Shown here: positions 49,247 to 61,380 of the stretch, piece by piece
How positions within the stretch are numbered: position 1 is the stretch's first letter
Layout of the letters: every line of letters starts with the position of its first letter
Origin: Pyrinomonadaceae bacterium
GTDB taxonomy: Bacteria; Acidobacteriota; Blastocatellia; Pyrinomonadales; Pyrinomonadaceae
Length of the DNA: 64,000 nt
Direction: 5' to 3'
NCBI GenBank assembly: GCA_025054715.1
Contig: JANWYH010000008.1
Span: forward strand, 1-64,000
Made by a program: the position numbers and the translations under genes
The notes under the pieces: generated by a model
Database searches by the model: none
Told to the model about the DNA's origin: nothing
What the model saw: only the letters and a program-made list of their open reading frames with translations

Positions 49247-50002
49247 CTAGGTTTCAATTTTTGCGATGGCTACAACCTTTTTGAGTTCTGAAACGACAAC
49301 TCCGCCCGGTTTTTCAGCTGTTACTACGAACATTTTAGGTTTTTCAACTTTTAATCTGACGTCTATGGGCAAAATTATTTCTCCTTGAGTGTTTACATTG
49401 AAAAGGCCGGCGTCTATTGGGTATTTTTGACCTTCGTCTACAATCCAAAGCTGATAAGTTTCTTTGTTGGGATCGTTTGTGGGTAGTGAAAAGAAACGGA
49501 CAAAGCCCTTTTGTTCTGCGTTATTCCATGCCAAATCTCCGATTATTTGATCTGGGTTTTTAGGGTCTTTCCATTGCAATTTAATGGTATCGGGCATTGA
49601 GAGAATTTTTTCTCTTTCTAAGAGGTTGTTGCTTTCCTGCTTTAGAAAATGTGTGAAGTAAATGTTAACTGCTAAGCCGATGATTGCCAGACCAGCAAAA
49701 ACCCAACCCAGCCAAGCAAAAATAGGAATTTTCTTTTCAGTGTTAAGTGCTTTAGGGGACTTTTCAAAATGGACTTCGGCTTCTTCGATGATTTTTTCTT
49801 TTAGATGAACAGGTAGAGGCTCTAACTCATTTAAACTGGTTAAATTTATTGCAGCTGCTGCAAGCTCAAAGGATTCTATTTCTTCTGCAAGTTCGGGAAG
49901 GTTTTTCGTAATCTCTTCTAATTCTTTTAGCTCTTCTTCTTCAAGCGAACCTAAAACCTTTCCCGAAATAAGCTCCTTTATTTTTTCGTCTCTTTCTTTC
50001 AC
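49247..50002 (-). CDS. Anti-sigma factor, RskA/anti-sigma-K type
   Basis: This is the membrane anti-sigma partner of the ECF sigma factor encoded just upstream. The 251-residue protein has a cytoplasmic N-terminal helical domain (residues 1-60, ELISGKVLGSLEEEELKELE) without zinc ligands. One membrane segment lies at about 93-115 (IFAWLGWVFAGLAIIGLAV). An extracytoplasmic anti-sigma-K domain follows (about 140-250, with YQLWIVDEGQKYPIDAG and FVVTAEKPGGV). It overlaps the sigma gene by four bases (ATGA). Confidence 0.92.
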   Translation of the reverse strand: MKERDEKIKELISGKVLGSLEEEELKELEEITKNLPELAEEIESFELAAAAINLTSLNELEPLPVHLKEKIIEEAEVHFEKSPKALNTEKKIPIFAWLGWVFAGLAIIGLAVNIYFTHFLKQESNNLLEREKILSMPDTIKLQWKDPKNPDQIIGDLAWNNAEQKGFVRFFSLPTNDPNKETYQLWIVDEGQKYPIDAGLFNVNTQGEIILPIDVRLKVEKPKMFVVTAEKPGGVVVSELKKVVAIAKIET

Positions 50003-50547
50003 GGAGTTTCTCCTTTTGAGCTATTTTTTATTCCGAGAATTTCTCTTATCTTAATCAAGCCGCGGCGTGCGTGTGATTTAACAGTTCCTAGTGGTATTCC
50101 CGTAATAGTTGAGACTTCTTGATGGGAAAATCCCTCACATATAAGAAGCCTTAATATCTGACGTTGCTCAGGCTTTAGTTGGTTGAAAGCTTCAATAACT
50201 TGTTTGACTTCAGCGTCGTGTTGAATCTGTTTATAACTTTGAGATAAACCCAAAGAAGCACTTTCTATTGATTCAATTTGAGGCTTTCGGCTTAATTTTC
50301 TTAATCGGTCAATCAAACGGCGCCTAGCTATCATTACAATAAATGTTGCTTCTGATGATTTGTTTCTATCAAACTTATAAGCGTTCTTCCAAATATCAAT
50401 GAAAATTTCTTGAACGGCGTCTTCTGCCTCTTGTCTATTAGCACACATCTTTTGTGCTAAAGCCCAGACTAGTCCGCCGTATGTCTCAACGCACTCTTCT
50501 ACAGCAGATGCATCTTTTCTAGCGATGCGTTCGAGTATTGAAGCCAC
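49999..50547 (-). CDS. ECF sigma-70 factor (SigK-like)
   Basis: This alternative sigma factor is kept inactive at the membrane by the RskA-like protein encoded next. The 182-residue protein has region 2 (residues about 20-90, AEDAVQEIFIDIWKNAYKFD and FIVMIARRRLIDRLRK) and region 4 (about 118-172, LKPEQRQILRLLICEGFSHQ then EVSTITGIPLGTVKSHARRG). The start is GTG 50547, as no suitable ATG exists. It probably senses an envelope signal and may drive the downstream M16 and cupin genes as well as its own operon. Confidence 0.94.
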   Translation of the reverse strand: MASILERIARKDASAVEECVETYGGLVWALAQKMCANRQEAEDAVQEIFIDIWKNAYKFDRNKSSEATFIVMIARRRLIDRLRKLSRKPQIESIESASLGLSQSYKQIQHDAEVKQVIEAFNQLKPEQRQILRLLICEGFSHQEVSTITGIPLGTVKSHARRGLIKIREILGIKNSSKGETP

Positions 50548-52910: not shown

Positions 52911-53789
52911 ATGCTGCTAAATAAAACGAAATTGCCGCCGGTAATCCTAGTCTTGCTGGCGGTTTTATTATGGTCCACTGGCGGAGTTTTTATAAAACTT
53001 ACAACTCTAGATGCCTTTGCGGTAAATGCGGGAAGGTCTTTGTTAGCAGCGATTACCGTCTTTTTACTTACCCATAAAAAGGGTTTGAAATTCGATTACT
53101 TTACATTGTTAGCAGCGCTACTTTACGCTGGGACGCTTTCCTGCTTTGTTTATGCAACTAAAACAACATACGCGGCGAATGCGATTTTCCTCCAATACAC
53201 GGCTCCTGTCTATGTTCTAATTCTTTCGCCTCTAATTTTGAAAGAAAGGTTTCGACCGTCTGATCTTTTAACGATCATTTTTTGCATGTTCGGAATGATG
53301 CTTTTCTTTTTTGAGATGGAGCCTATACAAACAGCTCCCAATGTGTCTTTGGGAAACATATTTGGGCTTCTTTCAGGGTTATTTTTCGGTCTTTATTTTG
53401 TTTTGCTACGACATCCTTTAGCTCTTAAAAATCCTAATCCGGCGGTTTCGGTTTTCTATGGAAATTTGATAGTTGTCTTGGTTATGCTTCCATTTATTTT
53501 TCAAAATCCTCCTAATCCTAGCTCTATTGATTATCTTGCGATCTTTTTCTTGGGGGTTTTCCAGATTGGTTTAGCTTATATTCTTTTTACGAACGGAGTA
53601 GCCAGTGGAGTTCGCCCATTTGATGCAAGTATTCTGGGATTTATCGAGCCTCTATTAAATCCGCTTTGGGTTTTTGTTTTTCTCGGAGAAACTCCTTCTC
53701 CTTGGGCAATTTTAGGTGGAGCAATAATTCTTACTACTGTTGCTTTCCATACCTTAAAACAGAATTTACCTGCTCAAAAGCCTGTTTGA
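52911..53789 (+). CDS. DMT superfamily transporter, EamA type
   Basis: The 292-residue inner-membrane protein has ten hydrophobic segments in two EamA repeats. The first begins ILVLLAVLLWSTGGVFIKL; the second includes IFGLLSGLFFGLYFVLLRH and PFDASILGFIEPLLNPLWVF. Such permeases export metabolites or amino acids; the substrate is unknown. It starts 10 nt after the ferredoxin-domain gene. Its last 56 bases overlap the end of the convergent flippase gene. Confidence 0.9.
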   Translation: MLLNKTKLPPVILVLLAVLLWSTGGVFIKLTTLDAFAVNAGRSLLAAITVFLLTHKKGLKFDYFTLLAALLYAGTLSCFVYATKTTYAANAIFLQYTAPVYVLILSPLILKERFRPSDLLTIIFCMFGMMLFFFEMEPIQTAPNVSLGNIFGLLSGLFFGLYFVLLRHPLALKNPNPAVSVFYGNLIVVLVMLPFIFQNPPNPSSIDYLAIFFLGVFQIGLAYILFTNGVASGVRPFDASILGFIEPLLNPLWVFVFLGETPSPWAILGGAIILTTVAFHTLKQNLPAQKPV

Positions 53790-55266
53790 GAAACTCTTTT
53801 TCTTCATTAAAAATGCCTAACTTTGAACCTGAAATCGTAATGGCAATGCCGAAAATCAGAAGGCAAAGCAATAAGTAGAAAGATCCGGCTAAAAATGGCA
53901 GGAAAATCTTAGAAAAGAAACCGTAGAGAACGCCTTTTGTGTATGTGATGAAAATAAACAGAAAAAAACCAGCGATAAGGCACGAAAAGGCAGTCTTTGC
54001 AACTGGCATCAAAAGTTTTAGGTGTTTTGTGTTGAAACCTAACTTTTTTGCTAAAATCGCCGTAAATAAAAGCTTTTCCAGAATCACAAGAGAAACGGCA
54101 ATCGTAATTACTCCAGTCAGATCAACGTGCCAGATAGCAAAATAAAGCGCAGACACCAAAACTATTAGGCTTAAGATTCTGATTCTTAAGAGCAATCTTC
54201 CTAGCTCCTTGTAAGCTCGGACAATCGGATCAGTAAGAAGTATCTCAAAAGGTAGAAGCGTTATGTTAACAAGAAAAATCGGAATGCTGGCATCAAACTT
54301 TTCTGTGAAAAGTGTCTTTATGAAAATGTCTGCTGTAGTGAAAAGAAAAACATAAATTGGGAAGTAGAAAAGAGAGAGCTTTTGCATGGATCTTACTGTA
54401 ACTCTTATCATCTCCTCTGTATCATCAACAGCTTGAAGCTTACTCATCTTAGGAATCAAAACCGAAGCGACTGATTCTCGCAATATCATTATCAAGGGGA
54501 TTTGAAAGCATCCGTAGGCATATATGGCGAAATCTTCAGCTCCAAAGCGGTAAGAAACAAAATAATTATGTAGATCATTCTGCAGAATCCAAATTAAACC
54601 GATAAAGCCGAGCGGTATGGCGTACTCGAGATGTCTTCTTATGAATGAAAATCTAGGCTTTTCCCACGAAAAACAGAGATTCCTCTTAAGGTAGATAATC
54701 AAAGCCAATATTTGTAGAAAACCTTGAATTATGGCTGCGTAAAGTAGAGACTCTATAGATGAGAAAAGAATCACTGCTAAAATCATCAAAGACGTTTTCG
54801 TAAGTTGAGAAAAGACAATAAAAAGCGTCGCAATTCTAGTTTCTTGGTTTGCTATAGCAAACGTTTCCAAAAGAGTAGAAAATGTCCATAACCAGACCGT
54901 TAAACCGATAAGAGTCGCTAAATCTTTTATTTGGTCGTTTGCAAGGGCTTTGGCTGGAAGATCAGAAAATAAAAAGAAGGATAAAAAAAAGCATCCGCCA
55001 ACTAGGAAATTAAAAAGCAGAATGTTTTGAATAAGCTGATTTTTACTTTCTGGTTCTCGCGGCAAGAAGTATAAAGCGGTCATCGGAAATCCAAACGGCA
55101 GTATTGAAGAAGCATTAGCCACAACTAGAAAAACTTGCCGATAAGTGCCGATTTCTTCGCGTGAAAGATAACGAACAACAAGTAATGGTAAAGCAAAAGC
55201 TAAAAGAAAACTAACAAATTTTGCCAAAAAAAGCCAGATACTTTGTATCTTGAGAGAAACGCTCAT
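53734..55266 (-). CDS. Polysaccharide flippase (Wzx/MATE-like)
   Basis: The 510-residue membrane protein with about 12-14 helices carries lipid-linked sugar units across the inner membrane. It begins WLFLAKFVSFLLAFALPLLV and has the conserved PLLVVRYLSREEIGTYRQVF pattern of the family. ATG 55266 overlaps the stop of the GT2 gene by one base (TGATG), so they are coupled. It is the last gene of the polysaccharide operon and converges with the EamA gene, sharing 56 bp. Confidence 0.88.
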   Translation of the reverse strand: MSVSLKIQSIWLFLAKFVSFLLAFALPLLVVRYLSREEIGTYRQVFLVVANASSILPFGFPMTALYFLPREPESKNQLIQNILLFNFLVGGCFFLSFFLFSDLPAKALANDQIKDLATLIGLTVWLWTFSTLLETFAIANQETRIATLFIVFSQLTKTSLMILAVILFSSIESLLYAAIIQGFLQILALIIYLKRNLCFSWEKPRFSFIRRHLEYAIPLGFIGLIWILQNDLHNYFVSYRFGAEDFAIYAYGCFQIPLIMILRESVASVLIPKMSKLQAVDDTEEMIRVTVRSMQKLSLFYFPIYVFLFTTADIFIKTLFTEKFDASIPIFLVNITLLPFEILLTDPIVRAYKELGRLLLRIRILSLIVLVSALYFAIWHVDLTGVITIAVSLVILEKLLFTAILAKKLGFNTKHLKLLMPVAKTAFSCLIAGFFLFIFITYTKGVLYGFFSKIFLPFLAGSFYLLLCLLIFGIAITISGSKLGIFNEEKEFLKQAFEQVNSVLRYGKQQ

Positions 55267-56267
55267 CAATATAGATGGAGATTGGAGATTATAGAAGCAA
55301 ATTCTGCTGGTCTAAATTTGCGGAAAGCTCTGAAAACGAACTTTGGGCTTATTTGTAGAAGAGCAATGAGAACAGCAAATTTCAATTTTGGCGATTTTAA
55401 ATGGGCTTTTGTTAGAAGCTTTTGTGCTCTTGAGAAATTTTCCTTTACTATTTGTATTTTCGCTCTTTGAATAGTTACCTCATTTTTTGCTCTGCTTATT
55501 TGCTCAATCAAAATTCTCTTTTCTTCGGAGCTAAGCTCATACTTTGAAGCTATCATTTCAAAAGATTTGAGCGATCGCTTTGCTTTTTGAAGTTCTGAGC
55601 CTGTAAGACCCGTTTCGCGCATACGATACTTGAGCAAAACCTTTTTCTGGTATCCTATTTTTGCACCTTGCTTTAACAGTCGAAACCATAGATCGAAATC
55701 TTCTGGAAAGGCACTTGTAAGATTTTCGTCGAATAAACCCGCTTTTACAAGCACATTCTTTTTTGCTAATGTTCCTGAGGTTATTAAGTTAACTCTTCCG
55801 CTAAGCAGACTCTCGGTCGTAACTTCGCCTTCTGAAGGGCATTCCTGCATGTAGGTTCGGAATTTTTTGTTTTTCAGGTTACCAAAGAGCATCGCATCAC
55901 AGTAGACGAGATCATAGTTTCTTTCCTTGATGAATTTCATTTGCCATTCAAGATATTCAGGGAACCAAATATCGTCGCTATCAAGGAAAGCTATGTAGCC
56001 GGATTTTGAATTCTTTATAGCCGTGTTTCTTGCCGAAGCTGCTCCTCGGTTTTTCTGTTTTATGTAAATGATTTTGTCCATGTACGGCTCAAGGACTCTT
56101 TCAAGCTTTTCTGTATCGGTTGAGCCGTCATTTACGACTATGATTTCATAGTTCTTAAATGTCTGTCTTAAGACGGAATCGAGTGTTCCTGCAATAAAAT
56201 CAGCAGAATTATAAACAGGTATTACGATGCTAACTTCAGGGAAAGATTCTACACTTCTTCTTTCCAT
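55266..56267 (-). CDS. Glycosyltransferase family 2
   Basis: The 333-residue GT-A enzyme begins with the family pattern VSIVIPVYNSADFIAGTLDS and VRQTFKNYEIIVVNDGSTD, followed by the metal-binding DxD-like FLDSDDIWFPE (residues about 95-105). The C-terminal 100 residues are basic and helical. It adds one sugar to the lipid-linked unit. It overlaps the flippase by one base and starts 2 nt after the second GT2 gene. Donor and acceptor are unknown. Confidence 0.9.
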   Translation of the reverse strand: MERRSVESFPEVSIVIPVYNSADFIAGTLDSVLRQTFKNYEIIVVNDGSTDTEKLERVLEPYMDKIIYIKQKNRGAASARNTAIKNSKSGYIAFLDSDDIWFPEYLEWQMKFIKERNYDLVYCDAMLFGNLKNKKFRTYMQECPSEGEVTTESLLSGRVNLITSGTLAKKNVLVKAGLFDENLTSAFPEDFDLWFRLLKQGAKIGYQKKVLLKYRMRETGLTGSELQKAKRSLKSFEMIASKYELSSEEKRILIEQISRAKNEVTIQRAKIQIVKENFSRAQKLLTKAHLKSPKLKFAVLIALLQISPKFVFRAFRKFRPAEFASIISNLHLY

Positions 56268-56269
56268 CT

Positions 56270-57406
56270 TTACCTTTTTGTTTCCCAGTTTGGAATCCTA
56301 TCTCCTTTCAAAAATTTATAAAACCCAATCAAAGAAGCTAGATTCGCTAAAAGAAAATAAAGAGGTTGCTTGAGAAATTTTACTTTTCTTTTTTCCAAAA
56401 ATCGAGCAATTAAGGCGAGAAGATAAAAAAGAAGCTGAAGAAAAAAAGTGAATACAAAAAAAAGAGATTCGGTTATTAGCAAGGCATTTGAAACGAATAA
56501 AGAAATCAGAAAAAATGGAACCATGTAGCGTAAAACTTTATGAGATATTAGTTCGATAGCATATAATCCTGTTTTGAAAGGATTTAGCATGTCTCGATTT
56601 ATCCATAGGTCTGTTAAGGTTTGAGTTACAACCCGAACACGCATGTTAAGTTCATCTTCAAAGTTTTCGTTGGTTTTTTCAAAGCAAATAGCTTCAGGTT
56701 CTATAATGCTACGTAAGCCTCGACGATAAAGTATGCTAGCTATTAGAAAGTCAGAACAGGCTTCTGGATACATTGGTTCATAAGCTGAGCGTCGCACAGC
56801 ATACATGCAGCCTGAAGCTCCTACTAGAGAACATGCTCGGCTTTCAGCTTCTTTTATGAAATTTTCGTATTCCCAATAGCTTTTCGTCCCATCGCCTATC
56901 GTAGAATTGGGGTCTGATACGTATATCAGTCGTCCTGTTACGCATCCGACCGATTCATCAGCAAAATTTGGTAGGAGCTTACGTAGAATGTTTTTAGGAT
57001 ATAACGTGGTTGCGTCTGAAAAAAGTATTATCTCACCGGAAGCTTGCTCAATCGCTTTATTCTGTGTGTAAGTTTTTCCTTTTCTACCTTCTTGACGAAA
57101 AAGTTTGACGCCTTGGTCTGAAAACTCTTTTACTATGTCGTCTGTTCTGTCAGTTGACCCATCGGATGCAACTATTATTTCGAGCTTTTGACGGGGATAA
57201 TCTATTTGAAGAGTATTCTGTATTTTTTGACGAATGTTTTTTTCCTCGTTATAGGCTGTCATGAGAATAGTAACCTTTGGCTCTATTTTTGATTTTTTAA
57301 CTTCTTTTGGGAAAAGCCTTCCGATGGAAAAGATAAGAAGCGGATAGCCAATATAGGTGTAAAAAAGAAGAAGTAAGCTAAGAAAGAAAATAATTTCAGC
57401 AATCAT
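56270..57406 (-). CDS. Membrane-bound glycosyltransferase family 2
   Basis: The 378-residue protein has an N-terminal membrane helix (FFLSLLLLFYTYIGYPLLIF). A GT2 domain follows with VTILMTAYNEEKNIRQKI, IIVASDGSTDRT, LFSDATTLYPKN and GASGCMYAVRR. Three membrane segments form the C-terminus (about 290-365). This layout is typical of polymerising or inner-membrane transferases. It overlaps the O-antigen ligase-like gene by 11 bases. Confidence 0.9.
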   Translation of the reverse strand: MIAEIIFFLSLLLLFYTYIGYPLLIFSIGRLFPKEVKKSKIEPKVTILMTAYNEEKNIRQKIQNTLQIDYPRQKLEIIVASDGSTDRTDDIVKEFSDQGVKLFRQEGRKGKTYTQNKAIEQASGEIILFSDATTLYPKNILRKLLPNFADESVGCVTGRLIYVSDPNSTIGDGTKSYWEYENFIKEAESRACSLVGASGCMYAVRRSAYEPMYPEACSDFLIASILYRRGLRSIIEPEAICFEKTNENFEDELNMRVRVVTQTLTDLWINRDMLNPFKTGLYAIELISHKVLRYMVPFFLISLFVSNALLITESLFFVFTFFLQLLFYLLALIARFLEKRKVKFLKQPLYFLLANLASLIGFYKFLKGDRIPNWETKR

Positions 57407-58838
57407 CTTTTGAGAATCTCAACTTCTTATAGATTCTACGTAAGGCAACTGCGTAAGCTACTAAGTAATAGACATACCAGTTATAAGCCACAGAAACAAA
57501 GAAGCTTGAAACCATATAAGCTACAAGGCTTGCTTGAAGCCCTACTGAAAAATAATAAAACCAATCGCCTTCTTCTTCCTGAATTTTCTCAATTGCAGAT
57601 AGTTTTTGAAAAGGACTTATCAAAAAAACTAGATAAAAGAACAATGCTACAATACCTAACTCAGACGCGATCTGCATGTAGGTGTTATGCCATTCCAGAT
57701 TGTAGTCGTTCATTATCGGGGAGTTTCCTATCCCGATTCCCCAGGGGTTTCTTGCTGTAACGTAAAGTGAGCGAAGAAACAAAGCTTTTCTTTGATCAAT
57801 CGAGCCTACAGGGTCGAGCTCTGGAGAAAAAATCGAAAGAAGCCTCAAAAAATAATTACTTGGAGCTATCAAAATGAAAAAAATCGAAAGTATCGCCGAA
57901 CCAATTAGGATTTTAAATCTTTGCTTTTGAGCTACTTTCCAGAGCAAGAAGAAAGTTGAGATAAGAAACCCTAAAAAAGCTCCTCTTGAGAACGTCACGG
58001 TCATTCCAGCGACAAAAAGAGCTGCCATTGAAAAATAAAGGAAACGCTTAAAGAAACCTTTCTGCGCAAGCGCTAAACAAACTGCAATAGGAATCATGGT
58101 GACAAGATGAAGAGCCATATCATTTGGGTTACCAAACATACCTCCGATTTCTACACCCACCCTGTAGCCTTCTACTCTAAATTCACCTCTTAAATACAGG
58201 TTTAGGGCAATCAGGCTTACGACAAAAGCAATCGAGAGGGACAGAAAAATCATTCCCAGTAGGCGTTTGCGAGTTCTGATGACATTCACCATTACGACGA
58301 AAATAACGGCTGCTTTTATGAAACTATCGTTGAAGGTTTGCCATGAGCGATCGAAGTTTTTTCCAATAAACGTCGTTATAAGCGCAAAAGCAACTAAACC
58401 AATGATGCATTTGACTTCAGTAGGGAATGCAGTAAAAGAAGCCTCTGTTAAAATCTGTGTCGGAACGAAAATTATTAACGTTGCTAAAGCAACATAAAAG
58501 GCAGTAGCAGAAAGAAAGCCAAGTGAAGGGACGAGTTCATAAGGACGAAACCACGCGAGAACCGAGAAAATATAAATTCCAATATAGGTCATCATATGAC
58601 CATTTTTGAGTAACCAGTTTTCCGTAGAAAGTAACTTTTTCGCTTTTACAATTTCAGGACTTTCTTTTTCGGTAAATACCAATTGTTCCACGCTTGCTAA
58701 GTCGGAAGCTTCATTGTGAGTTTTTGTCAGTATTTTTTGATTGGTTCTTTCAGGCGAAATGGTTCTGTGGCTTTTTTCGGAGCTTCTTTTTTTAGGAGGT
58801 TGTAAGGTTTGAAAGCGACTTTGTTTTTCTTTTTTCAT
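57396..58838 (-). CDS. O-antigen ligase/polymerase family protein (Wzy/WaaL-like)
   Basis: The 480-residue integral membrane protein has about ten helices after a long basic cytoplasmic N-terminus (residues 1-80, QSRFQTLQPPKKRSSEKSH). The large periplasmic loop contains YVTARNPWGIGIGNSPIMND and LEWHNTYMQIASELG, the conserved pattern of this family (a His in the H-N-x-Y type motif). It joins polysaccharide units or attaches them to an acceptor. It lies 27 nt after the sigma-like gene, on the same strand. Confidence 0.87.
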   Translation of the reverse strand: MKKEKQSRFQTLQPPKKRSSEKSHRTISPERTNQKILTKTHNEASDLASVEQLVFTEKESPEIVKAKKLLSTENWLLKNGHMMTYIGIYIFSVLAWFRPYELVPSLGFLSATAFYVALATLIIFVPTQILTEASFTAFPTEVKCIIGLVAFALITTFIGKNFDRSWQTFNDSFIKAAVIFVVMVNVIRTRKRLLGMIFLSLSIAFVVSLIALNLYLRGEFRVEGYRVGVEIGGMFGNPNDMALHLVTMIPIAVCLALAQKGFFKRFLYFSMAALFVAGMTVTFSRGAFLGFLISTFFLLWKVAQKQRFKILIGSAILSIFFILIAPSNYFLRLLSIFSPELDPVGSIDQRKALFLRSLYVTARNPWGIGIGNSPIMNDYNLEWHNTYMQIASELGIVALFFYLVFLISPFQKLSAIEKIQEEEGDWFYYFSVGLQASLVAYMVSSFFVSVAYNWYVYYLVAYAVALRRIYKKLRFSKDDC

Positions 58839-58865: not shown

Positions 58866-60002
58866 CTATTGAGCCTCAAGTATTAAATCCTTCACTTTTT
58901 TTCTAAGCTCTTGCTCAAAATGCCTAGCTTCGTTTACATCTGAAAATGAGAGACTTCTTAGGCTTTCTTCGATGCGTCGGCGGTAATCTGATACCAGAGA
59001 ATCAGAAACCTTAAGCATTTCTGCTATCTGAAGCTGAGTCCCTCCGTTTGGCGACAGATAACAATGCCAAAGTATTTTCATCATTCGGTTAAATTGTTTT
59101 GTTTTTCCATTGACTGCTTGATGAAGTCTCTTCAAAAATTCGTCAACACTATCCGCAGCTATCTGTTCGGCTTCTTTGCGAAGAATGCTTTCCTCAGGCG
59201 TTTCGCGAATATCTACTAACTCAATGCTAGGTTTTTCTTCTTCTGATTCATCGCCATTACTGATAGGTACAAGATATATATCAATCACGGGAAGCCTCGA
59301 AAGAACCAAAGATCGGAGGCTGCGAATGTCCATTGGCGAATCAACAGCTTTGAGAACACGGATAATCAATTCTTCTAACTCGCCGTTGCTAATTACTATT
59401 TGTGCATCACCAGTACAACCTACGTTTCTAATATTTCTTTTGTGAAAAGGAACAGTTTTAACTCTTACTTCTGCTTCTTGATAGCTACGGCGTTTTTTAT
59501 CGTCAGGCCACTCGGCTAGACCATAAATCCTGTCAGCTAATTTGCGAGATTCTTCCTGACCGTCTGAGTTATCGAAACGCTTAAAGGATTTGCTAGTTTG
59601 AATTATTGTTGATATTCTGCGGGCAAGCCTGTAACTTTCCGGATATCTTTTTCTTAATTCTGTAGTTAAAAGGTTGGTAAGCTCAATCTGTGCGATTTCT
59701 TTTTCAATCTCTTCATCTGACATTCTGTTATCAAGGTAATGCTGAAATCTATCTTTACTTAGCAAAATGAAGAAAAGTTCCTGGGTTAGTTCAACATAAA
59801 TATCCTGTTTTGAGGCTTTGTCGTCTAACAAACCGGCTGTTTTAGAAGCTCTCACTAACGGATGAGAGCTAACGATACGATAAAGTTCCGACCAGATTCC
59901 ATTTACATCCTCTTTGCTTAGAATTTTATTCCATTTTCCGATCTTTCTATCTCTTTTTCTTGACACTACACCAGAGCACTTTGTGTGTTTGACTGTGTTC
60001 AT
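58866..60002 (-). CDS. Sigma-like DNA-binding protein of unknown function
   Basis: This 378-residue protein is not assigned to a named family. The first 140 residues are helical and resemble sigma region 2 in layout (DIYVELTQELFFILLSKDRF, TTELRKRYPESYRLARRIST). The middle 160 residues include an acidic stretch (GDESEEEKPSIELVDIRETP). Near 321-347 there is a helix-turn-helix like sigma region 4 (GTQLQIAEMLKVSDSLVSDY). The start ATG 60002 has AGGAGA upstream. It heads the polysaccharide operon and faces a zinc-finger gene across a 246-bp gap. A regulator of the operon is the simplest reading, but this is inferred. Confidence 0.7.
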   Translation of the reverse strand: MNTVKHTKCSGVVSRKRDRKIGKWNKILSKEDVNGIWSELYRIVSSHPLVRASKTAGLLDDKASKQDIYVELTQELFFILLSKDRFQHYLDNRMSDEEIEKEIAQIELTNLLTTELRKRYPESYRLARRISTIIQTSKSFKRFDNSDGQEESRKLADRIYGLAEWPDDKKRRSYQEAEVRVKTVPFHKRNIRNVGCTGDAQIVISNGELEELIIRVLKAVDSPMDIRSLRSLVLSRLPVIDIYLVPISNGDESEEEKPSIELVDIRETPEESILRKEAEQIAADSVDEFLKRLHQAVNGKTKQFNRMMKILWHCYLSPNGGTQLQIAEMLKVSDSLVSDYRRRIEESLRSLSFSDVNEARHFEQELRKKVKDLILEAQ

Positions 60003-60248
60003 AAATTTCTCCTGAAAAAAGGCAGAGCGTCCCCTGCTAACCTGAGTATCAGAATTTTCAATCGAATCAGCTTACGCCGGGAAGGGCTTGTGTGTGAGAC
60101 GATCACACCTTTTCGATATTAACAAGAATCTTAACCTTTAGCAAGATTTTTTTACTTGTTAAACAAATTAAGGAAAACAGAAGATTTTGGAAAAGTCGAG
60201 CAATTAGCGATTTTCTCTTTGTCGGGGAATTCAATAGAGGATTTTCTG

Positions 60249-60527
60249 ATGATAAAAGTTTTTTGCAAGACGATAAATTGCCCGTCTTCAGAGGCTTTAC
60301 TTGACTTTCAGAAGAATAGACTTGCAATCAAAGAGGCAAGAAAAGTGAGTGAACATCTTTTAGAATGTGAGTTCTGCGCTTCTGAAGTGGCTTTTTATTC
60401 ACGGTTGAAAAGAATAAAAGAAACCAGCAACAAAATAGCACCCATACCACCTAAGTTACTGGAGTTTGCCGGGAGACTTCTAAGAAAAAGGAACGAAACT
60501 TCTAATGGTTTTAAAGATTCTGTCTAG
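60249..60527 (+). CDS. Small zinc-finger protein of the anti-sigma (zf-HC2) type
   Basis: From ATG 60249 the protein has 92 residues; the frame extends upstream to 60156 without support. C11 in CPSSEALLDF and the motif H36-x3-C40-x2-C43 (SEHLLECEFCASEV) match the zinc anti-sigma layout. It lacks a membrane segment, so it would act in the cytoplasm. It is divergent from the sigma-like gene, which suggests, but does not prove, that the two proteins interact. Confidence 0.72.
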   Translation: MIKVFCKTINCPSSEALLDFQKNRLAIKEARKVSEHLLECEFCASEVAFYSRLKRIKETSNKIAPIPPKLLEFAGRLLRKRNETSNGFKDSV

Positions 60528-61289: not shown

Positions 61290-61380
61290 TGGCGGAGAGG
61301 GTGGGATTCGAACCCACGATACCCTTTTGGGGTATAACGGTTTTCGAGACCGCCCGATTCAACCACTCTCGCACCTCTCC
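61290..61380 (-). tRNA. trnS: tRNA-Ser (CGA anticodon)
   Basis: A 91-nt class II tRNA with a long variable arm. The acceptor stem GGAGAGG (61380-61374) pairs with CCTCTCC (61300-61294), followed by discriminator G and encoded CCA (61292-61290). The anticodon loop reads CTCGAAA, giving anticodon CGA. The T arm is GTGGG-TTCGAAT-CCCAC. Its 3' end borders the accessory remnant region. Confidence 0.95.

What the first reader, a model, noticed from the sequence alone, without database searches (positions are those of the whole stretch)
58866..60527. Sigma-like protein and divergent zinc-finger protein at a polysaccharide operon
The first gene of the operon encodes a protein with sigma region 2-like and region 4-like ends separated by about 160 residues. 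A cytoplasmic anti-sigma-type zinc finger is encoded divergently. This may be an undescribed regulatory pair that controls polysaccharide export.
Basis: partly seen in the sequence, partly recalled or inferred. Interest (0 to 1): 0.5.

Follow-up and report, generated by a model that had tools for sequence, protein, structure and literature searches.

The report
Sigma-like switch for exosortase surface proteins
A soil-bacterium gene pair, an unusual sigma-factor-like protein and a small zinc-binding protein, looks like an unnamed genetic switch, and a DNA signal beside it recurs in front of genes that sort proteins to the cell surface, which gives a concrete experiment to run.

Summary
Window 58866-60002 (-) encodes a 378-aa protein with a region 2-like N-terminus, a region 4-like C-terminus and a conserved middle part. 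A 92-aa soluble Hx3Cx2C zinc-finger protein is divergent (ATG 60249, end 60527). In Pyrinomonadaceae the pair is adjacent in 81 of 84 testable loci. 43 of 56 homologues hit the sigma70-ECF model, below its cut-off. All 34 listed structure rows that include the N-terminus are sigma factors, at modest Z. Pfam and NCBIfam hold no model for either protein.

New: the gap holds a sigma70-like promoter towards the sigma gene (75 of 81) and a promoter-like element towards the zinc-finger gene, TTnTGGAA-N10-ATT-N5-TTT (core 8/8 in 75 of 81). The element also precedes PEP-CTERM genes (core in 13 of 53 against 19 of 974 ordinary genes), exosortase-linked prsT (10 of 12 against 5 of 166 controls) and some exosortase genes (6 of 14). 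Best reading: an alternative sigma and its anti-sigma control the exosortase/PEP-CTERM regulon, with feedback on the anti-sigma. Binding and transcription are inferred. Polysaccharide genes adjoin in 51 of 72 loci.

The parts
58866..60002 (-). Sigma-like protein, 378 aa, first gene of the polysaccharide operon
   Evidence: homologues in 71 of 97 relatives
59586..59933 (-). Region 2-like N-terminal part (about residues 24-139), with DLTQEL (here ELTQEL) and IELTNLL..LRKR
   Evidence: A1 conservation; model helices H24-H136; hhalign to ECF region 2.2, E 9.8e-5, probability 58%
59208..59555 (-). Conserved middle part (about residues 150-265): GLxxWxxxK, RdtRxvGctGdxQ, and an HTH-like ELEELI..DSP.D.R.LR segment; no known domain found
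58935..59153 (-). Region 4-like C-terminal part (about residues 284-356)
   Evidence: hhalign to ECF region 4.2, E 1.5e-3, probability 17%
60116..60144 (-). Sigma70-like promoter of the sigma gene: TTGCTA, extended -10 TGTTAATAT
   Evidence: regex hit in 75 of 81 intergenics; alignment
60185..60213 (+). Promoter-like element TTTTGGAA-N10-ATT-N5-TTT towards the zinc-finger gene; 0 mismatches, the only such site in the window
60249..60527 (+). Soluble zinc-binding anti-sigma-like protein, 92 aa (C11, H36, C40, C43), followed by an IPxPLxELAxxLL-type tail
57396..58838 (-). O-antigen ligase-like protein (Wzy_C; best NCBIfam model TIGR03097, below cut-off), next gene of the operon
56270..57406 (-). 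Glycosyltransferase family 2
55266..56267 (-). Glycosyltransferase family 2
53734..55269 (-). Polysaccharide flippase-like protein (Polysacc_synt_3)

Best explanation
The 378-aa protein is an alternative sigma factor of the sigma70 type with an unusual third domain between regions 2 and 4. The divergent 92-aa protein is its cytoplasmic zinc-type anti-sigma. The sigma gene is read from a housekeeping-type promoter, so sigma is always made but held by the anti-sigma. When released it reads the element TTnTGGAA-N10-ATT-N5-TTT. That element lies in front of the anti-sigma gene (negative feedback) and of genes of the exosortase/PEP-CTERM system: prsT, PEP-CTERM proteins and, in some genomes, exosortase. 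The pair therefore switches exosortase-dependent surface-protein sorting, which is coupled to exopolysaccharide. Shown here: conservation of the pair, sigma-like sequence and fold signals, the zinc ligands, both promoter-like elements, and sharing of the element with the exosortase system. Inferred: core-polymerase binding, sigma/anti-sigma binding, and recognition of the element by this sigma. The signal (metal, redox or partner switch) is unknown. A role of the middle domain in reading the spacer ATT is a guess.
For: Sigma nature: TIGR02937 sigma70-ECF matches 43 of 56 homologues at E <= 0.1 (best 6.3e-6) and sporulation SigE models 30 and 24, while no non-sigma NCBIfam model matches more than 3. 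Some matches start in region 2.2 and run to region 4.2 across the insert (L060 61-348, L043 68-346). In VIA-align 39 of 50 rows are sigma factors, and all 34 rows that include the N-terminus are (best 6jbq_F, E. coli sigmaE, Z 7.5, rmsd 17.0, 171 aligned of 186). Pair: 81 of 84 loci. Over 60 family genomes: both present 55, neither 3, sigma only 2, zinc finger only 0. The zinc-finger profile's further matches include ORFs directly beside ECF sigma genes: G000:C16:375553 beside C16:376009, G003:C23:1337349 beside C23:1336799, G060:C2:423629 beside C2:423059. Element: core 8/8 in 75 of 81 gaps; 1 of 81 in Markov sequences, 0 of 81 on the opposite strand. Consensus with up to 1 mismatch in 1.27 Mb: 80 sites in these gaps, 6 elsewhere, 2 for the reversed pattern. 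PEP-CTERM upstreams: 8 of 26, expected 0.54; separate second set 5 of 27, expected 0.56; only spacing 10 is enriched; ordinary genes 19 of 974; Fisher 7e-10. Flanks not used for selection agree between the two gene classes. prsT 10 of 12 at >= 11/13 matches against 5 of 166 controls, Fisher 3e-11; exosortase 6 of 14. Co-occurrence: exosortase in 55 of 71 sigma-bearing and 1 of 26 sigma-free genomes.
Against: No match reaches a curated sigma cut-off (best seen 25.8 of 42.9 bits), and Pfam gives mostly HTH-level hits. Foldseek gave nothing at E <= 0.001; VIA Z values stay below 8, where helical proteins can match by chance, and the two-domain alignments have rmsd of about 17. hhalign against ECF sigmas is short and weak. 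Nothing tests binding. Another regulator could read the element. The element is absent upstream of the sigma gene in the 16 loci of two other families, which also lack the zinc finger, and upstream of exosortase in 4 genomes of one of them. G019 has the element at prsT but no detected sigma or zinc-finger gene (87% complete). Two family genomes keep sigma without the zinc finger (G001 of the same genus; G003). In the window's own genome the exosortase match (11/13) lies inside the upstream ORF and may be chance. A longer, branch-specific form of the motif was not enriched in the window's genome (42+38 against control 43+40).
Confidence: 0.6

Rival explanations
1. The protein descends from a sigma factor but no longer acts as one. 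It binds the TGGAA-N10-ATT element through its HTH parts as an ordinary activator or repressor, and the zinc-finger protein modulates it.
For: Matches stay below sigma cut-offs. There is a large conserved middle part. The most common Pfam match is a plain HTH model (HTH_23 in 30 of 56). Sites lie 61-350 bp from the assigned start codon of the zinc-finger gene, a wide range for a promoter unless leaders are long.
Against: The D-L-T-Q-E motif that aligns with sigma region 2.2 is nearly invariant, which an ordinary HTH regulator would not need. All N-terminal structure rows are sigma factors. The element has a -35/-10-like layout and is not a palindrome. In the window it ends 36 bp before the start codon.
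Confidence: 0.2
2. The pair is a real sigma/anti-sigma pair, but the element is read by another regulator of the exosortase system that also controls the anti-sigma gene.
For: The link between sigma and element is by location and co-occurrence only. G019 carries the element at prsT without a detected sigma gene.
Against: In 1.27 Mb of loci the best sites fall almost only in the sigma/zinc-finger gap (80 of 86). G019 is an 87% complete genome that lacks both adjacent genes, as one missing piece would give.
Confidence: 0.13
3. One reading: the pair mainly controls the adjacent polysaccharide operon.
For: Polysaccharide gene on the same strand within 3.5 kb in 51 of 72 loci, O-antigen ligase in 49. 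In the window the operon starts with the sigma gene.
Against: 21 of 72 loci have the sigma gene without polysaccharide genes next to it, many beside a Ser/Thr kinase instead. No mismatch-free element in front of the window's polysaccharide genes. The promoter in front of the operon is sigma70-like.
Confidence: 0.07

Closest known systems
ECF sigma factors with class I zinc-type anti-sigma factors (such as ChrR/SigE, RsiW/SigW; PMC7406223, passages read)
   Same: Region 2 and region 4 ends; soluble Hx3Cx2C partner encoded next door; GGAA-type upstream element; feedback on the partner gene; the partner sequence is compatible with three helices, a linker and a fourth helix.
   Different: Conserved middle part of over 100 residues between regions 2 and 4; scores below every curated sigma cut-off; divergent genes; extra conserved ATT between the two promoter halves; sigma gene under a sigma70-like promoter.
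PrsK/PrsR sigma54 control of PEP-CTERM genes in Proteobacteria (PMC1569441, passages read)
   Same: One cis-element in front of PEP-CTERM genes; link to exosortase, prsT and exopolysaccharide genes.
   Different: That element is a -24 GG/-12 GC sigma54 site. Here TGGAA and ATT are 10 bp apart and the likely regulator is a sigma70-type protein with an anti-sigma. PrsK/PrsR were not searched for here.
SigI-type sigma factors (PMC10575876, seen in a search listing only)
   Same: Sigma70-family protein of unusual architecture used for surface or polysaccharide functions (listing abstract; the rest recalled).
   Different: No SigI model among the matches; partner is a soluble zinc finger, not a membrane RsgI-type protein (recalled).

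Membership tests
sigma70-family sigma factor | Region 2 with the polymerase-binding region 2.2 motif | tested here: met
   D71 and T73 nearly invariant, Q74 and L76 invariant in 56 homologues; aligned to ECF region 2.2, E 9.8e-5, probability 58%, 13 columns. That this motif binds beta-prime is recalled knowledge.
sigma70-family sigma factor | Region 4 helix-turn-helix at the C-terminus | tested here: met
   (3vfz_B Z 6.7, rmsd 2.6 over 62 residues)
sigma70-family sigma factor | Match above a curated sigma model cut-off | tested here: not met
   Best seen 25.8 bits against 42.9 for TIGR02937; 43 of 56 match at E <= 0.1. It is therefore filed as sigma70-like, not as a named member.
sigma70-family sigma factor | Binds core polymerase and directs promoter-specific transcription | not testable with these tools
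   needs biochemistry
ECF (group 4) sigma factor | Only regions 2 and 4 joined by a short linker | tested here: not met
   Conserved middle part, about residues 150-265. So it is not filed as an ECF sigma, only as working like one.
Class I (zinc-type) anti-sigma factor | Hx3Cx2C zinc motif plus an upstream ligand | tested here: met
   C11, H36, C40, C43 invariant in 29 orthologues; motif definition in PMC7406223
Class I (zinc-type) anti-sigma factor | Encoded next to its sigma factor | tested here: met
   81 of 84 same-family loci; 0 of 16 loci in two other families
Class I (zinc-type) anti-sigma factor | Three-helix bundle, linker, fourth helix | tested here: inconclusive
   Pattern compatible by eye (invariant P67, L70, A74); no model was predicted for this protein
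Class I (zinc-type) anti-sigma factor | Match above a curated family cut-off | tested here: not met
   15.1 of 165 bits (RseA) and 14.4 of 62.5 (RsrA); both are equivalog models of other proteins
Class I (zinc-type) anti-sigma factor | Binds and inhibits sigma | not testable with these tools
   needs biochemistry
Proteobacterial PrsK/PrsR/sigma54 PEP-CTERM regulation | -24 GG/-12 GC element in front of PEP-CTERM genes | tested here: inconclusive
   The enriched element is GGAA-N10-ATT and no other GGAA-ATT spacing from 4 to 20 is enriched; a sigma54 pattern itself was not scanned for
Proteobacterial PrsK/PrsR/sigma54 PEP-CTERM regulation | PrsK and PrsR present | not tested
   no search made

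The most novel reading that the evidence does not exclude
A new family of three-domain sigma factors, found so far only in three families of one Acidobacteriota class, is the dedicated switch for exosortase-dependent surface-protein sorting in Pyrinomonadaceae. Its middle domain reads the ATT placed between the two promoter halves, and a soluble zinc anti-sigma under its own control senses a cytoplasmic metal or redox signal. It would replace the PrsK/PrsR/sigma54 control known from Proteobacteria.
Probability: 0.42. Interest if true: 0.75.

Novelty: new variant of a known kind. Interest (0 to 1): 0.62.

Why it matters
Exosortase/PEP-CTERM systems are widespread, and the only control described in the papers seen here is sigma54-based and proteobacterial (PMC1569441, passages). 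This gives an Acidobacteriota family a candidate regulator, a partner, a promoter element and a list of target genes from sequence alone. It also adds a sigma-like architecture that current family libraries miss. Each step can be tested with reporters in a laboratory host.

Tried and rejected
Promoter regulon by a longer motif: TTTGGAA-N10-ATT-N3-GATTTA was found once each in 6 of 60 genomes, with no match for the reversed pattern (the places are those of the sigma/zinc-finger gap), and the two-mismatch scan of the window's genome showed no excess. GGAA-N10-ATT-N3-GATTTA matched in 51 of 119 family genomes. The longer motif fits only one branch; the shorter consensus came from comparing branches.

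Structured leader RNA: the sigma gene's leader shows two hairpins in one branch. Pairing within a sequence beats pairing across sequences (z -7.2 and -6.3, 0 of 10000 permutations each; controls -0.4 and -1.9; 30 sequences). RNAalifold on the MAFFT alignment gave 0 pairs and Rfam gave only a tRNA in 16 loci. Left as a side observation.

N-terminal domain alone: the second structure job was sent without an alignment by oversight and gave pLDDT 46; not used.

Sequence search of solved structures: only two weak HTH-level hits. First scan of named genome contigs with the single protein found none; with the alignment it found 123.

First PEP-CTERM upstream sets used wrong start codons and were discarded; one search replaced them.

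Sigma54 site: rejected for the element, because the spacing differs from the -24/-12 layout (PMC1569441).

Dropped rows: L148 and L152 left out of alignment A2 (29 of 31); one search used 30 distinct of 31; one search counts distinct loci after removing copies; PEP-CTERM set 1 used 26 of 30 loci (L246, L250, L265 without a usable ORF, L267 a fragment), set 2 used 27 of 30 (L277, L291, L298 without an ORF), and the set 2 loci are the 30 that the tool gave out of all its matches. In one search two 'control' ORFs with 12/13 (L320_12, a cut prsT-like ORF, and L323_6, the window genome's PEP-CTERM gene) are really targets; they were taken out of the 168 to give 166.

Full report
What is there. The window lies in contig C22 of a 2.45-Mb genome. 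ORF 1 (58866-60002, -) and the divergent zinc-finger ORF are real. The zinc-finger start is most likely ATG 60249, leaving a gap of 246 bp; the other 34 gaps measured are 463-964 bp.

The sigma-like protein. P0001 alone gives sub-threshold HTH and sigma hits. Homologues occur in 71 of 97 related genomes: 57 of 60 in the family, 14 of 37 elsewhere in the class. In a phylum sample of 396 genomes 33 matched, all in the same class: 28 in the family, 5 in two others. A scan of named genome contigs found 123 relatives; the 80 kept carry Acidobacteriota-type titles, apart from one titled only 'bacterium'. In 56 aligned homologues the N-terminus carries a nearly invariant D-x-T-Q-[ED]-L motif (the window's own copy reads ELTQEL after D) and a downstream IELTNLL..LR[KR] block, and the C-terminus a region 4.2-like HTH. 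NCBIfam TIGR02937 matches 43 of 56 members and SigE models 30 and 24, while non-sigma models match at most 3. Some member matches run from region 2.2 to region 4 across the insert. hhalign with 19 local sigma proteins aligned the region 2.2 and 4.2 motifs in order, but weakly (E 9.8e-5 and 1.5e-3 as single comparisons). The AlphaFold model has mean pLDDT 82 and low-confidence stretches at 1-17 and 240-264. VIA-align lists 39 sigma factors among 50 rows. All 34 rows that include the N-terminal part are sigma factors; the 11 non-sigma rows cover only the C-terminal HTH (RPSB, RPSD and RPSH are read as UniProt names of Bacillus sigma factors, recalled). Foldseek itself gave nothing with E <= 0.001.

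The zinc-finger protein. In 29 orthologues F5, K7, C11, P12, H36, C40, F42, C43, E46, P67, L70 and A74 are invariant. Hx3Cx2C across helices 2 and 3, followed by a linker and a helix that binds sigma region 2, is how class I anti-sigma domains are described in PMC7406223 (passages read; there about 35% are soluble and about 72% of the soluble ones have the zinc motif). When the profile was searched in 97 genomes, three further matches lay directly beside ECF sigma genes.

The pair. Of 104 distinct loci 81 have the divergent zinc-finger gene. Of the 23 without, 16 are from the two other families, 4 end at the contig edge and 3 lack it (L044, L049, L067). By genome, with E <= 1e-15 for the zinc finger: both 55, neither 3, sigma only 2, zinc finger only 0 of 60.

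Neighbours. Polysaccharide genes follow on the same strand within 3.5 kb in 51 of 72 loci with enough sequence, O-antigen ligase in 49; an AMP-ligase lies upstream in 40 of 64. In the two other families the sigma-like gene sits beside exosortase-A-system genes in several loci: TIGR03006, TIGR03019 or TIGR03087 above cut-off in L055 and L056, and TIGR03015 below cut-off in L058-L060. Exosortase (TIGR02602, E <= 0.001) is found in 55 of 71 sigma-bearing and 1 of 26 sigma-free genomes (genomes are related, so the Fisher value of 2e-11 overstates independence). In 8 genomes sigma and exosortase lie on one contig about 15-33 kb apart (G003, G010, G014, G016, G035, G041, G055, G058).

The promoter-like elements. 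Alignment of 18 gaps showed two conserved blocks. Towards sigma: TTGC[TC]CA with an extended -10, TGnTAnnAT, found by regex in 75 of 81 gaps. Towards the zinc-finger gene: TTTTGGAA-N10-ATTRCRGATTT in one branch. The shared core TGGAA-N10-ATT is present 8/8 in 75 and 7/8 in 6 of 81 gaps, against 1 of 81 and 0 of 81 (8/8) in the two controls.

Sharing with the exosortase system. An unbiased dyad count upstream of PEP-CTERM genes gave GGAA-N10-ATTG as the top dyad (5 sequences; 10 shuffles reach at most 4). Testing GGAA-N10-ATT: 8 of 26 against 0.54 expected, 0 of 1000 Markov sets, other spacings 0-2. A second set from 17 other genomes gave 5 of 27 against 0.56, 0 of 1000. Upstreams of 974 ordinary ORFs gave 19, the same as other spacings (14-26). 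Positions outside the selected core agree between zinc-finger and PEP-CTERM sites: TT at -3 and -2 (82/92% and 84/84%), TTT at +23 to +25 (98/90/98% and 84/61/84%). A genome scan with TGGAA-N10-ATTGNCNNTTT in 33 genomes gave 18 sites against 6 for the reversed pattern: 4 at zinc-finger genes, 2 at PEP-CTERM genes (L314, L318), 1 at a secreted ARAD-type protein (L304), 1 at prsT beside exosortase (L310), 4 at one family of secreted PKD proteins (L301, L305, L313, L315), and 6 unexplained. In 15 stretches around exosortase or a PEP-CTERM gene, the consensus scored >= 11/13 upstream of 10 of 12 prsT-like genes and 6 of 14 exosortase genes, against 5 of 166 other ORFs (two mislabelled controls removed as told; 1 of 5 further PEP-CTERM-like ORFs there reached 11). 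PrsT and exosortase names were confirmed for examples (TIGR02917 400 bits against cut-off 312 for L325, below cut-off for L327 and L331; TIGR02602 above cut-off for L319, L322, L325). In the window's own genome the element precedes the zinc-finger gene (13/13) and its single PEP-CTERM candidate (12/13, about 67 bp before the ATG). The exosortase match there lies inside the upstream ORF and is not counted on.

Limits. The element was not found upstream of sigma in 16 loci of the other families or at exosortase in 4 genomes of one of them, so the regulon claim is for Pyrinomonadaceae only. G019 has the element at prsT (12/13) without a detected pair. No experiment links sigma to the element.

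Literature. Searched: in an open-access library only. No paper held 'Pyrinomonadaceae' with 'sigma factor', none 'PEP-CTERM' with 'ECF sigma', none 'exosortase', 'Acidobacteria', 'PEP-CTERM' and 'regulation' together. PMC1569441 (passages) describes sigma54-type control of PEP-CTERM genes in Proteobacteria and says that further regulatory proteins and motifs remain to be found. Other papers were seen in search listings only.

Noticed in passing
L031-L182, between the sigma-ward promoter and the sigma start (for example L143:7703-7852): The leader of the sigma gene carries two hairpins that appear to co-vary in one branch (z -7.2 and -6.3); no Rfam match. The window's own leader is shorter and was not scored.
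   Followed up: partly
L301:1680-2675, L305:1618-2529, L313:1632-2633, L315:410-1411: A family of secreted proteins with PKD-like domains in four genomes has the element 115-180 bp upstream.
   Followed up: partly
G029:C33:84813-85049, G041:C92:7889-8146, G055:C96:17593-17826: Second zinc-finger paralogues lie right beside PEP-CTERM genes (compare).
   Followed up: no
L033, L035, L038, L121, L149: Where polysaccharide genes are absent, a convergent Ser/Thr kinase often follows the sigma gene, and several of these genomes lack a clear exosortase.
   Followed up: no
L049 (G001, same genus): The closest relative keeps a diverged sigma copy (48-53% identity) but has no zinc-finger neighbour and no exosortase hit.
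   Followed up: partly
49247-50547: An ordinary ECF-type sigma gene (49999-50547, matches PF04542) with an overlapping downstream gene (49247-50002) that looks like a membrane anti-sigma.
   Followed up: no
61293-61380: A tRNA gene on the minus strand (Rfam RF00005, L001:3925-4012).
   Followed up: no
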